Assembly: GCA_021801385.1 (NCBI GenBank)
Contig: JAJYYC010000014.1
Span: 1 to 33,370, forward strand
Direction: 5' to 3'
Length of the DNA stretch: 33,370 nt
Source: Microcaldota archaeon
GTDB taxonomy: Archaea; Micrarchaeota; Micrarchaeia; Micrarchaeales; Micrarchaeaceae
Part shown: piece after piece, positions 3,787-23,158 of the stretch
Layout: every line of letters begins with the position of its first letter
Numbering within the stretch: the first letter of the stretch is position 1
Program-made: the position numbers and the translations under genes
The notes under the pieces: model-generated
Database searches by the model: none
The model's input: the letters and a program-made list of their open reading frames with translations, nothing else
Told to the model about the DNA's origin: nothing

Positions 3787-3903
3787 GCCAAAACATTAAA
3801 TCCGTTTTTATGCTCTGGAGCTAGATTTTCGCGAAATCCTGAAATCTGATTTGCTAGCTTTGCGGTGTATAGAACATCGCACTTGTCGTAGTAATTTCTG
3901 AAA

Positions 3904-3927
3904 TGGGCCCGCGGAGAATCGAACTCC
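3904..3927 (-). repeat. 24-bp direct repeat copy A: tRNA-Val 3' end fragment (putative att scar)
   Basis: tgggcccgcggagaatcgaactcc is identical to 5411-5434, the T-arm/acceptor 3' end of tRNA-Val(TAC). No matching tRNA 5' half around 3928. Confidence 0.9.
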
Positions 3928-3946
3928 AGTCTTCCACAAAGCATTG

Positions 3947-3986
3947 ACGGGCATGACGGGATTTGAACCCACAACCCCGAAAAGAG
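3947..3986 (-). other. tRNA 3'-half-like fragment (T-arm, CATGCCC acceptor strand, G discriminator; possible long variable arm)
   Basis: Minus strand ...GGGGTTGTGGGTTCAAATCCCGTCATGCCCG: T-stem GTGGG/CCCGT around TTCAAAT, then CATGCCC-G. Preceding AGCTC(TTTTCG)GGGTT could be a Ser/Leu-type variable arm (boundary approximate). No GGGCATG-type 5' acceptor strand within several hundred bp upstream on that strand. Confidence 0.6.
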
Positions 3987-4289
3987 CTTTTGTTTCCGTG
4001 TCCCTATGGGACAAAAATTCATCCACTACTCCGTTAAGATGAATTTTATGGAAACAACGAAAATGTATACCTGCAAGGATTGCTGATATGGGAGCAAATT
4101 TCCCATTAGTGAATGGGAACAGGAAGACTGCCGACAAAGTCGTCAGGAAGCACGACTTGAAAGTCGTATACGCCGTTTGCTATACGGCATAATAATCGGA
4201 GGAAGCATCTCATTCTCTATACTCGTGATGCAGATAATCGCGTGGCTCAAGCACTTTTAAGTGCGCGCGGTGTCCGCTATAAATAAAGG

Positions 4290-4679
4290 TTAACGTTTCC
4301 ACTCTTTAATATGGGGACTGAAATCAAGTTGATAATCAGGGATTCCTAAAGTAAGTCCATAGGCAGTTGCATTATTATATTGCTCTTTGCTTGACCTGTC
4401 GATGTAAAAGACCTTGTTTCTGAAAATAATGAAGTGATGTGTATCATTCTCGAAATCGGCATACCAATTATGCTTTGAATCGAGTGAATTGCTCAGTTTT
4501 TTGGCAATCTCTTTGGCTTTGTTATCTTGAATCTCTATGGTATCAAGAGTCCATTGTTTAACCCAAGGCGTCTTGTGTTCTGGTGTGGCTTTCTCTATCT
4601 TCTTCTGCGTAATCTTGACCTCTTTTAAGACTGATTTGTCTTCAAGGCTTTCTTCTACTATAACTCCTATGAAAGTCAT
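4290..4679 (-). CDS. Hypothetical protein (129 aa), island gene
   Basis: Single ORF, contains WYADFENDTHHFIIFRNKVFYIDRSSKEQYNNATAYGLTLGIPDYQLDF; 10-bp gap from the co-oriented upstream ORF. Confidence 0.75.
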   Translation of the reverse strand: MTFIGVIVEESLEDKSVLKEVKITQKKIEKATPEHKTPWVKQWTLDTIEIQDNKAKEIAKKLSNSLDSKHNWYADFENDTHHFIIFRNKVFYIDRSSKEQYNNATAYGLTLGIPDYQLDFSPHIKEWKR

Positions 4680-4689
4680 GATAAGAACC

Positions 4690-5070
4690 TCAATTTACTA
4701 GATTAATCGGTTTCCATTTTATGAAAGCTTCTATGTTATCAATTAATATATCGTAGCTTTTCTTTATTCCGTAATTGGTCTTGTAAGCTATATGTGGCGT
4801 CAATAAGACCTTTTCATTATTTCTGAACTTTGTATATTCTGGTGATTTGTAATCACTATTATCCATTGCAGCACCAGCTAGATTTTTTTTCAATGCTTCG
4901 AGTAAAGCTTCGCTGTCGTAAAGCTCAGGAGGTGAGATAGTTACAAAATATGAGCCTTTTCGCATCAAGGAAAATTCCTTTTTGCCTATTATTCCTTTGG
5001 TTTCATCTGACAATGGTAATGCACAAAAGAGCACATCTGAGACCAATTCTTTTATTTCCATATCATTCAA
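4690..5070 (-). pseudogene. Truncated D-isomer 2-hydroxyacid dehydrogenase (C-terminal part of the NAD-binding domain only)
   Basis: SDVLFCALPLSDETKGIIGKKEFSLMRKGSYFVTISPPELYDSEALLEALKKNLAGAAMD...VLLTPHIAYKT...NIEAFIKWKPINLVN aligns by eye to the family; the usual RG-x-x-V-D is PPELYD, and the N-terminal half of the protein is missing. Confidence 0.75.
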
Positions 5071-5122
5071 AACATATTTGTTAAATAGAATGATAAATCT
5101 ATCTAATGTAATTCATAAAAAT

Positions 5123-5266
5123 ATGAGCAATCAAAGTATAAATCATGCCAGAGCTGCACAGGAACGACAAGATAAAGATAATAATTGCTTTGCTAGTGTT
5201 ATAGGCGGACTAATTTTCTTTACTGCTATAACGGTGATTCTTCTGTTTATTGGAGACTTAGGCTGA
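5123..5266 (+). CDS. Small predicted membrane protein (47 aa)
   Basis: ATG 5123 gives MSNQSINHARAAQERQDKDNNCFASVIGGLIFFTAITVILLFIGDLG with one clear TM segment; the longer track ORF from 4982 overlaps an antisense gene. Confidence 0.45.
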   Translation: MSNQSINHARAAQERQDKDNNCFASVIGGLIFFTAITVILLFIGDLG

Positions 5267-5410
5267 GTATGGCTAAAGTATTTCCAACAAGGAGATAAGC
5301 CATTCAAAGTTGGGAATGTAACTGTAAAGATGACACACGGAGTGAGAACTCCGAAAAGGATGCCTCTTACGTTCGGTTCCGAATCCCGAACTATAGAGAG
5401 ATTTGCTGAG

Positions 5411-5482
5411 TGGGCCCGCGGAGAATCGAACTCCGATCCCCAGCGTGTAAGGCTGGTATCTTAACCATTGGACCACAGGCCC
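5411..5482 (-). tRNA. tRNA-Val (anticodon TAC)
   Basis: Minus strand GGGCCTG acceptor pairs with CGGGCCC; anticodon arm CCAGC-CTTACAC-GCTGG; T-arm CGGAG-TTCGATT-CTCCG; discriminator A. Confidence 0.93.
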
Positions 5483-6479: not shown

Positions 6480-7799
6480 ATGTCTGACATACCTATGGAG
6501 GTGCGCAACACGTTCATGCGCCTTAAAGGCGAATACCCTTTTTACATAGCGCTTGCAAGGATAAACAGAAGATATTATGTTTATAGGAGGACCAGCAGGT
6601 GGGATCCAGAGGCTCACAAACCCAAAAGTGTATCCGAATATCTTGGCAGCATAGACATATCAGGCGACTTTCATGAAAAAAAGCGCACCGCACCGCAGAA
6701 TATCCTAAAACCAGAGCATACGATACAGAAGATAGAGCTTGACGCTAAAGAGACACAGATACTAAAATGCATCACGCAGAATGCAAGGATGACGCGTGCA
6801 AGAATGGGTGAGATTGCAGGCGTGTCTGTGCGTTCTGCAGATACAATGCTGCGCCGGATAGAGCGCAATTATGGTGTAAGATACGGGTGCAAGTATGACC
6901 ATACAAAATTTGGCTATTCATCCTATCTCCTTCTGGTAAGATCCGAAAAGGAACCACCTCCAAGAGAGGAGATGATAAGGGCGCTGTCCGACAATCCAAG
7001 AGTCCAGTTGGCTGCAGTCACCAAAGGCAGGTATTCCATAATAATGTACATTCTAGCTGAGGACACAGAGGCGATAGACAAGCTGATACGTGGCATCAGG
7101 AAATCTAATCCGTTCCTTAATTTCCCATCAAGATGGTACATAACACCTGCCTCATTAAGCTATTCCTCTATACCTCTACGCGACATATTTTTCGACCTCA
7201 TAAAAGAGAGAGTATGGAAACGCAGCAGGGCATTTCCAAGGAGGGAGCGAGGCATGTTCCTGACGAGCGAATACGCGGTTATGCGTGAACTCAACGCAGA
7301 TTCGTCGCAGCCATTCTCAGAGATAGACAAGAAACACGGGCTGAAGCAGGGTAACGCCCGAAATGCATACGAGCATCTTTTGGAACGAGGGCTCATCCAA
7401 ACCACCGCATCGCTAATCAAAATACCGATAAAGTACAATGGCATCATAATCGTGCGCATAATAAACCAAAAGGGGTTTCTGGAACGTCGCAACATGTTGA
7501 TGCGCCATATTTGCGATGACGAAAAGATGGTGCCTAATAGGTTCTCGTATATTGCGGATCTATATACTCCTGACGGAATAATATTCATAATGCCTGTATT
7601 CAATGATGGCGAGCTTGAATCCGAAACCACGCGGCTGCAGAACTTGATGGGCGGTGTAAGCACAGAATCTATTGTGATAACAGATCTGTTCATTGGGCAA
7701 TTCAATTATTCTAAACTAGACGTCAAGCACACCACACAGCACATCATGCTCGAAAAAAGAAATGAGATAGAACCTTCAGAGAAGATAGATTATAGCTAG
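6480..7799 (+). CDS. Multi-HTH (Lrp/AsnC-like) regulator with transposase-like N-terminus
   Basis: ILKCITQNARMTRARMGEIAGVSVRSADTMLRRIERNYGVRYG is an AsnC-type HTH, followed by ligand-domain-like repeats; N-terminal RRYYVYRRTSRWDPEAHKPKSVSEYLGSID resembles a segment seen in archaeal/IS transposases. Confidence 0.7.
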   Translation: MSDIPMEVRNTFMRLKGEYPFYIALARINRRYYVYRRTSRWDPEAHKPKSVSEYLGSIDISGDFHEKKRTAPQNILKPEHTIQKIELDAKETQILKCITQNARMTRARMGEIAGVSVRSADTMLRRIERNYGVRYGCKYDHTKFGYSSYLLLVRSEKEPPPREEMIRALSDNPRVQLAAVTKGRYSIIMYILAEDTEAIDKLIRGIRKSNPFLNFPSRWYITPASLSYSSIPLRDIFFDLIKERVWKRSRAFPRRERGMFLTSEYAVMRELNADSSQPFSEIDKKHGLKQGNARNAYEHLLERGLIQTTASLIKIPIKYNGIIIVRIINQKGFLERRNMLMRHICDDEKMVPNRFSYIADLYTPDGIIFIMPVFNDGELESETTRLQNLMGGVSTESIVITDLFIGQFNYSKLDVKHTTQHIMLEKRNEIEPSEKIDYS

Positions 7800-23065: not shown

Positions 23066-23158
23066 GGGTCTGTGGCGCAACTTGGATAGCGCACCCGGCT
23101 TCGGACCGGGCGGTTGCGGGTTCAAATTCCAAAAAGGATGAAAATCCCGTCAGACCCG
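23066..23158 (+). tRNA. tRNA-Arg (anticodon TCG) with 18-nt intron in the T-loop
   Basis: GGGTCTG/CAGACCC acceptor, GCGC D-stem, CCCGG-CTTCGGA-CCGGG anticodon arm, T-arm GCGGG-TTCAAA(T)...CCCGT interrupted by ~18 nt (23127-23144 or 23128-23145). Confidence 0.92.

What the first reader, a model, noticed from the sequence alone, without database searches (positions are those of the whole stretch)
3904..5434. ~1.5 kb island bounded by exact 24-bp duplications of the tRNA-Val 3' end, without a visible integrase
tgggcccgcggagaatcgaactcc occurs at 3904-3927 and at 5411-5434, the latter being the 3' end of an intact tRNA-Val(TAC). This is the classic attL/attR layout of tRNA-targeting integration. 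The enclosed DNA is more A+T-rich and carries two co-oriented short genes and one tiny TM ORF, but no tyrosine recombinase. It may be a minimal element mobilised in trans, or the remains of a larger one.
Basis: partly seen in the sequence, partly recalled or inferred. Interest (0 to 1): 0.72.

Follow-up and report, generated by a model that had tools for sequence, protein, structure and literature searches.

The report
Dead integrated element, two tRNA-derived landing sites
This 1.5-kb island is the decayed remains of a small mobile element that inserted at the end of a valine tRNA gene in a Micrarchaeota archaeon, and the landing-site sequence inside its broken recombinase gene still carries copies of two different tRNA ends, a possible record of how such elements change targets.

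Summary
In detail: the 24-bp repeat is exact, occurs only at 3904-3927 and 5411-5434, and the right copy is the 3' end of an intact tRNA-Val(TAC). Relatives explain it. Candidatus Micrarchaeota carry many 1.7-11 kb elements with SSV-type ("suicidal") tyrosine recombinases: attP lies inside int, and integration into a tRNA gene splits it into a tiny IntN and a large IntC. Rejoining the halves restores one frame in 16 of 18 elements (0 of 36 control frames). In the window, 4026-3904(-) is an IntN and 5410-5273(-) is a probable IntC stub (weak alone); the catalytic part is gone. Left of 3904 lies a relic of a second, different integrase (83% over 105 bp), so at least two elements used this tRNA. 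Unexpectedly, the IntN holds two tandem tRNA 3' halves, Arg then Val, 44 nt apart. The same 44-45-nt chains recur in one integrase clade. There, catalytic domains 96-97% identical sit at tRNA-Arg(GCG), Arg(CCT) and Pro(CGG), and the leftover core lies on the side expected if one attP had several alternative cores. The island is a remnant; the tandem-core attachment site is a new variant. The known SSV-type Pfam domain (PF16795) was not found in these integrases.

The parts
5410..5482 (-). intact tRNA-Val(TAC), the attB gene, restored by the integrated 3' end
   Evidence: ARAGORN; Rfam RF00005 62.8 bits over 5411-5482
5411..5434 (-). attL core: tRNA-Val T arm, 3' acceptor strand and discriminator
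   Evidence: exact 24-bp match to 3904-3927
5273..5410 (-). probable IntC stub of element A: start of the large integrase fragment; catalytic domain deleted
   Evidence: frame set by IntN stays open through the core for 45 more codons; best local match is the IntC start of L181, same clade, colinear; score 36, reached by 6/200 shuffles and 3/200 window controls. Suggestive alone
5123..5266 (+). small ORF, 47 aa, one apparent membrane span
   Evidence: ORF list and sequence; function unknown
4690..5070 (-). C-terminal fragment of a D-2-hydroxyacid dehydrogenase
   Evidence: PF02826 E=6.9e-19, profile positions 92-178/178; 80% identical to part of a 302-aa ORF in G082
4290..4679 (-). gene of unknown function, 129 aa
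   Evidence: 17 of 164 genomes of the order match, none of the three other same-genus genomes; best 73% in G082 of another family
3904..4026 (-). IntN of element A: GTG start, VDEFLSHRDTETKALFGVVGSNPVMPVNALWKTGVRFSAGP
   Evidence: 123 nt open in frame; tblastn match of an intact integrase N-terminus, E=3.9e-4; layout as in L182 MARKDTRRTLSVLPSKVAGSNPVMPATAMTGIRVQISATP
3948..3972 (-). core 1: tRNA-Arg(NCG)-type 3' end, not used here
   Evidence: 1 mismatch in 25 to Micrarchaeota tRNA-Arg 3' ends; 3-6 mismatches to the four tRNA-Arg of this genome compared
3904..3927 (-). core 2 = attR: tRNA-Val 3' end, the site used
   Evidence: exact copy of 5411-5434; 44 nt from core 1
3801..3903 (-). relic of the IntC start of a second, Val-targeting integrase (element B)
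   Evidence: blastn 83% over 105 bp to L219, E=3e-21; 80% over 101 bp to L247 (at tRNA-Val(CAC)), E=9e-18

Best explanation
The island is the remnant of a small integrative element (A) of a Micrarchaeota family whose tyrosine recombinase gene contains its own attP. A inserted by recombination between the tRNA-Val 3' end and the second of two tandem tRNA-derived cores (Arg, then Val) in the 5' part of int. This rebuilt tRNA-Val(TAC), left a short IntN with both cores at the far end (4026-3904), and put IntC next to the tRNA. A then lost the catalytic part of int and most of its cargo. It had inserted between the tRNA and an older integrase relic (B), now about 100 bp. Shown by sequence: repeat, IntN, tandem cores, B relic, family architecture. 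Inferred: that the right stub is IntC, the order of events, and that cores 1 and 2 were alternative landing sites.
For: Repeat and tRNA. Family: 59 of 60 relatives match part of the region, mostly tRNA genes and their 3' ends; integrases sit directly 3' of tRNAs with the frame open through the tRNA end; 166 named relatives, the 80 listed nearly all Ca. Micrarchaeota. IntN plus IntC rejoin in frame in 16/18 elements against 0/36 control frames. Tandem cores 44-45 nt apart, none in resampled DNA. Integrases 96-97% identical at Arg(GCG), Arg(CCT), Pro(CGG); the Pro core is unused in L181, and Arg core 1 is left in the IntN of L182. B relic. IntN similarity. Composition. Tandem elements at one tRNA are seen elsewhere, as at tRNA-Ala in L164.
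Against: The right stub alone is weak (p about 0.015-0.03). The window's IntN has no ATG in the proposed frame, only GTG. The shared core is 24 bp, shorter than the 40-50 bp reported for suicidal integrases (PMC8371274). No empty site with the same flanks was found. No attP circle was found: viral contigs gave one distant hit (25%), and no read data were available.
Confidence: 0.85

Rival explanations
1. A still mobile mini-element: both 24-bp cores are intact, so a related integrase from a superinfecting element could excise and move the island in trans.
For: Perfect repeats; an integrase-less 3.9-kb segment bounded by tRNA-Arg(CCG) 3' copies in L161; trans excision of elements with split integrases is reported (PMC8371274).
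Against: Only decayed integrase pieces in the 77% of the genome available; truncated cargo; no second copy known.
Confidence: 0.15
2. The left copies are gene halves of split, trans-spliced tRNAs (Nanoarchaeum type), not attachment sites.
For: The pieces are 3' halves and the organism is a DPANN archaeon.
Against: An intact tRNA-Val(TAC) is present; the halves lie inside integrase reading frames and at element ends in relatives; they are chained head to tail at 44-45 nt. Pairing leaders and 5' halves were not searched for.
Confidence: 0.03
3. A chance or segmental partial duplication of the tRNA-Val 3' end unrelated to integration.
For: None beyond the short repeat.
Against: Integrase fragments at the left end and probably at the right, Arg core beside it, foreign composition.
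Confidence: 0.02

Closest known systems
SSV-type (suicidal) integrase elements: SSV1, pTN3, pT26-2
   Same: attP inside int; integration at a tRNA splits int into IntN and IntC; direct repeat of a tRNA piece at the far end
   Different: Found in Micrarchaeota; PF00589 but no PF16795 match, whereas PMC8371274 assigns known suicidal integrases to PF16795 and a single origin; very short IntN (mostly 27-28 aa); in one clade several tRNA halves in tandem; the window copy is dead
pNOB8-type (classical) archaeal integrases at tRNA genes
   Same: tRNA 3'-end targeting
   Different: the integrase gene stays intact on integration; here it is split
Tycheposons and other small tRNA-linked elements of marine bacteria (recalled, not searched)
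   Same: small cargo elements bounded by a tRNA and a partial tRNA copy
   Different: bacterial; no relation was tested

Membership tests
SSV-type / suicidal archaeal integrase elements | attP within int, so integration splits int into IntN and IntC | tested here: met
   16/18 relatives rejoin in frame; the window halves also rejoin in frame, though its IntC stub is short
SSV-type / suicidal archaeal integrase elements | target is a tRNA gene, rebuilt intact | tested here: met
SSV-type / suicidal archaeal integrase elements | Phage_integr_3 domain PF16795 (PMC8371274) | tested here: not met
   all 20 integrases scanned match PF00589, none PF16795 at E<=1
SSV-type / suicidal archaeal integrase elements | catalytic R-H-R-H-Y domain | tested here: met
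   met in relatives (alignment); absent in the window element
SSV-type / suicidal archaeal integrase elements | recombination activity at the att cores | not testable with these tools
   needs an assay
Split (trans-spliced) tRNA genes | no intact gene for that tRNA; separate halves with complementary leaders | tested here: not met
   intact tRNA-Val(TAC) present; leaders not searched

The most novel reading that the evidence does not exclude
Tandem arrays of tRNA 3' halves inside suicidal integrase genes act as multi-target attachment sites. One integrase can use whichever core matches an available tRNA gene, each retargeting adds a core, and the array records past targets. Here the host's tRNA-Arg(TCG) is closed to core 1 by sequence differences and a T-loop insert, so the element used core 2.
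Probability: 0.35. Interest if true: 0.82.

Novelty: new variant of a known kind. Interest (0 to 1): 0.6.

Why it matters
How suicidal integrases change target is discussed as an open problem (PMC8371274), because the att site is also protein-coding sequence and the proposed model is chimerism between integrated copies. Tandem tRNA halves in one reading frame, with near-identical integrases at the matching tRNA genes, suggest a simpler and testable route. The family also suggests that integrase-gene-splitting elements are common in Micrarchaeota and may have arisen outside the known PF16795 group. The T-loop inserts in host tRNA-Arg(TCG) give a concrete place to test the Randau and Soll idea (cited in PMC4090602) that tRNA introns block integration.

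Tried and rejected
(1) Cassette array (integron-like), suggested by two IntN copies around a VOC gene in L052: rejected; each site is an ATG-IntN-tRNA 3' end of the split-integrase type. (2) Post-tRNA motif ACGACGACAAAA as a host RNA or terminator: rejected; it codes the first residues of IntC. (3) The dehydrogenase-DUF pair as proof of an element in G082: not accepted; there the genes lie 1.6-3.8 kb past tRNA-Arg(TCG) behind what looks like a chromosomal purK-type gene (named by eye), with no att copy. (4) Empty site in G001-G003: not found. (5) attP in viral contigs: none close. (6) Right stub by blastn/tblastx alone: not significant.

Full report
Observation. The 24-mer is exact at 3904-3927 and 5411-5434, with no other match up to 3 mismatches and none in 100 shuffles. 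The right copy ends an intact tRNA-Val(TAC). The segment between is the most A+T-rich and most k-mer-deviant stretch of its length in the window.

What the left copy is. In tRNA sense (minus strand) the order is: tRNA-Val, 5410-5273, cargo, 4026-3904, then 3903-3801. A search of 60 relatives showed the sequence around the left copy recurring next to tRNA genes. Tyrosine recombinase genes (PF00589) lie directly downstream of many tRNA genes there, with the reading frame running through the tRNA 3' end. Larger stretches revealed far-end copies of the same tRNA ends, many preceded by a short ATG reading frame. Rejoining that short frame (IntN) with the tRNA-adjacent frame (IntC) gave one open frame with a start in 16 of 18 elements, against 0 of 36 in the wrong frames; element sizes in this set were 1.7-9.1 kb, and one in G052 is 11.1 kb. 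This is the split, or suicidal, integrase architecture known from SSV1, pTN3 and pT26-2 (PMC8371274). A scan of named genomes returned 166 relatives; of the 80 kept nearly all are titled Candidatus Micrarchaeota, a few Marsarchaeota, Nanoarchaeota or bacterium MAGs.

The window as such an element. Minus strand 4026-3904 reads VDEFLSHRDTETKALFGVVGSNPVMPVNALWKTGVRFSAGP. It is matched by an intact integrase N-terminus (E=3.9e-4) and has the layout of the IntN of L182. Continuing across the core into the tRNA-adjacent DNA, the same frame stays open for 45 codons (LSKSLYSSGFGTERK...) and resembles L181 (FKSSVYGSGFKTRGK) and L182; the DNA score is reached by 6 of 200 shuffles and 3 of 200 window controls. 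I treat the stub as probable, not proven. The catalytic domain is absent. Left of the core, 3903-3801 is 83% identical over 105 bp to the IntC start of L219 and 80% to L247, an integrase at tRNA-Val(CAC). L219 and L247 group together in the tree, apart from the clade of L180-L187. So a second, different element once used the same tRNA. Tandem insertions of this kind occur at tRNA-Ala in L164.

Tandem cores. The IntN holds a tRNA-Arg(NCG)-type 3' end (3948-3972, 1 mismatch in 25) and the Val 3' end, 44 nt apart. Scanning all held loci for tRNA 3' ends on one strand gave neighbour spacings of 44 or 45 nt in 18 cases (redundant loci included; 13 distinct pairs printed, 11 of them at 44-45), with no pair in resampled DNA. 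Examples: Arg-Lys-Val in L183, Arg-Val after intact tRNA-Arg in L048 and L091, a four-member chain in L057. The telling set is L181, L182 and L184: catalytic domains 96-97% identical sit at tRNA-Arg(GCG), tRNA-Arg(CCT) and tRNA-Pro(CGG). L181, inserted through core 1, keeps an unused core identical to the tRNA-Pro(CGG) 3' end on its IntC side. L182, inserted through core 2, keeps Arg core 1 on its IntN side. These are the two outcomes expected of one attP with alternative cores. Elsewhere in the tree target amino acids are mostly stable within clades (Leu, Glu, Ala, Val). That the cores are used as alternatives in one molecule is inferred, not shown.

Why Val here. Core 1 has 3 to 6 mismatches to the four tRNA-Arg 3' ends of this genome that were compared, and the tRNA-Arg(TCG) at 23066-23158 has an 18-nt insert in its T loop. 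Such inserts occur in 20 of the 24 same-family tRNA-Arg(TCG) sequences displayed and in none of three from the other family. This fits a closed core-1 target but is confounded by phylogeny.

Cargo. The 129-aa gene is patchy (17 of 164 genomes; absent from the three other same-genus genomes) and is closest to G082 of another family (73%); the dehydrogenase fragment is also closest there among the loci compared (80%), where the dehydrogenase ORF is full length (302 aa) and a roughly 0.9-kb hydrolase-like region intervenes. This suggests arrival from another Micrarchaeota lineage, as inference.

Function now. Most likely none as a mobile element: only decayed relatives of the integrase remain in the available 77% of the genome, at tRNA-Asp (two stops) and tRNA-Glu. 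Trans mobilisation is possible but unsupported.

Known or new. It works like SSV-type elements. By the PF16795 criterion it is not a member of the described group; the closest solved structures by sequence are XerA-type. Library searches found no paper describing this Micrarchaeota family or tandem att cores; the library is incomplete, so this is not proof of novelty.

Noticed in passing
window 23066-23158(+), insert 23126-23143: tRNA-Arg(TCG) with an 18-nt insert in the T loop, missed by ARAGORN and below the Rfam cut-off. T-loop inserts of variable length occur in most same-family relatives shown, not in the three of the other family; possibly a noncanonical intron.
   Followed up: partly
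L294 (G000:C7:4327-4542) and L111 near 7530-7640 (G000:C25): Other decayed integrase relics in the window's genome, just downstream of tRNA-Asp(GTC) (two stops) and tRNA-Glu(TTC).
   Followed up: partly
L161:50-4036: A 3.9-kb segment bounded by tRNA-Arg(CCG) and an IntN with the same tRNA end, without integrase: another int-less element.
   Followed up: no
L052:1478-2043: Two IntN/tRNA-Arg copies flank a single VOC (glyoxalase-like) gene: stacked far ends of two elements.
   Followed up: no
L181:10096: ARAGORN calls a tRNA-Cys that is only the second core of a tandem array, so such arrays can create false tRNA annotations.
   Followed up: partly
window about 4139-4260(+): Open frame without a clear start, ending in a single apparent membrane span (EARLESRIRRLLYGIIIGGSISFSILVMQIIAWLKHF), similar in kind to the 47-aa ORF at 5123-5266.
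   Followed up: no
L048 and L091 integrase 5' regions: Further T-arm-like repeats (GCGGGTTCGGGGTGCG and similar) recur within IntC after the cores; they may be older, worn cores or integrase-binding repeats.
   Followed up: no
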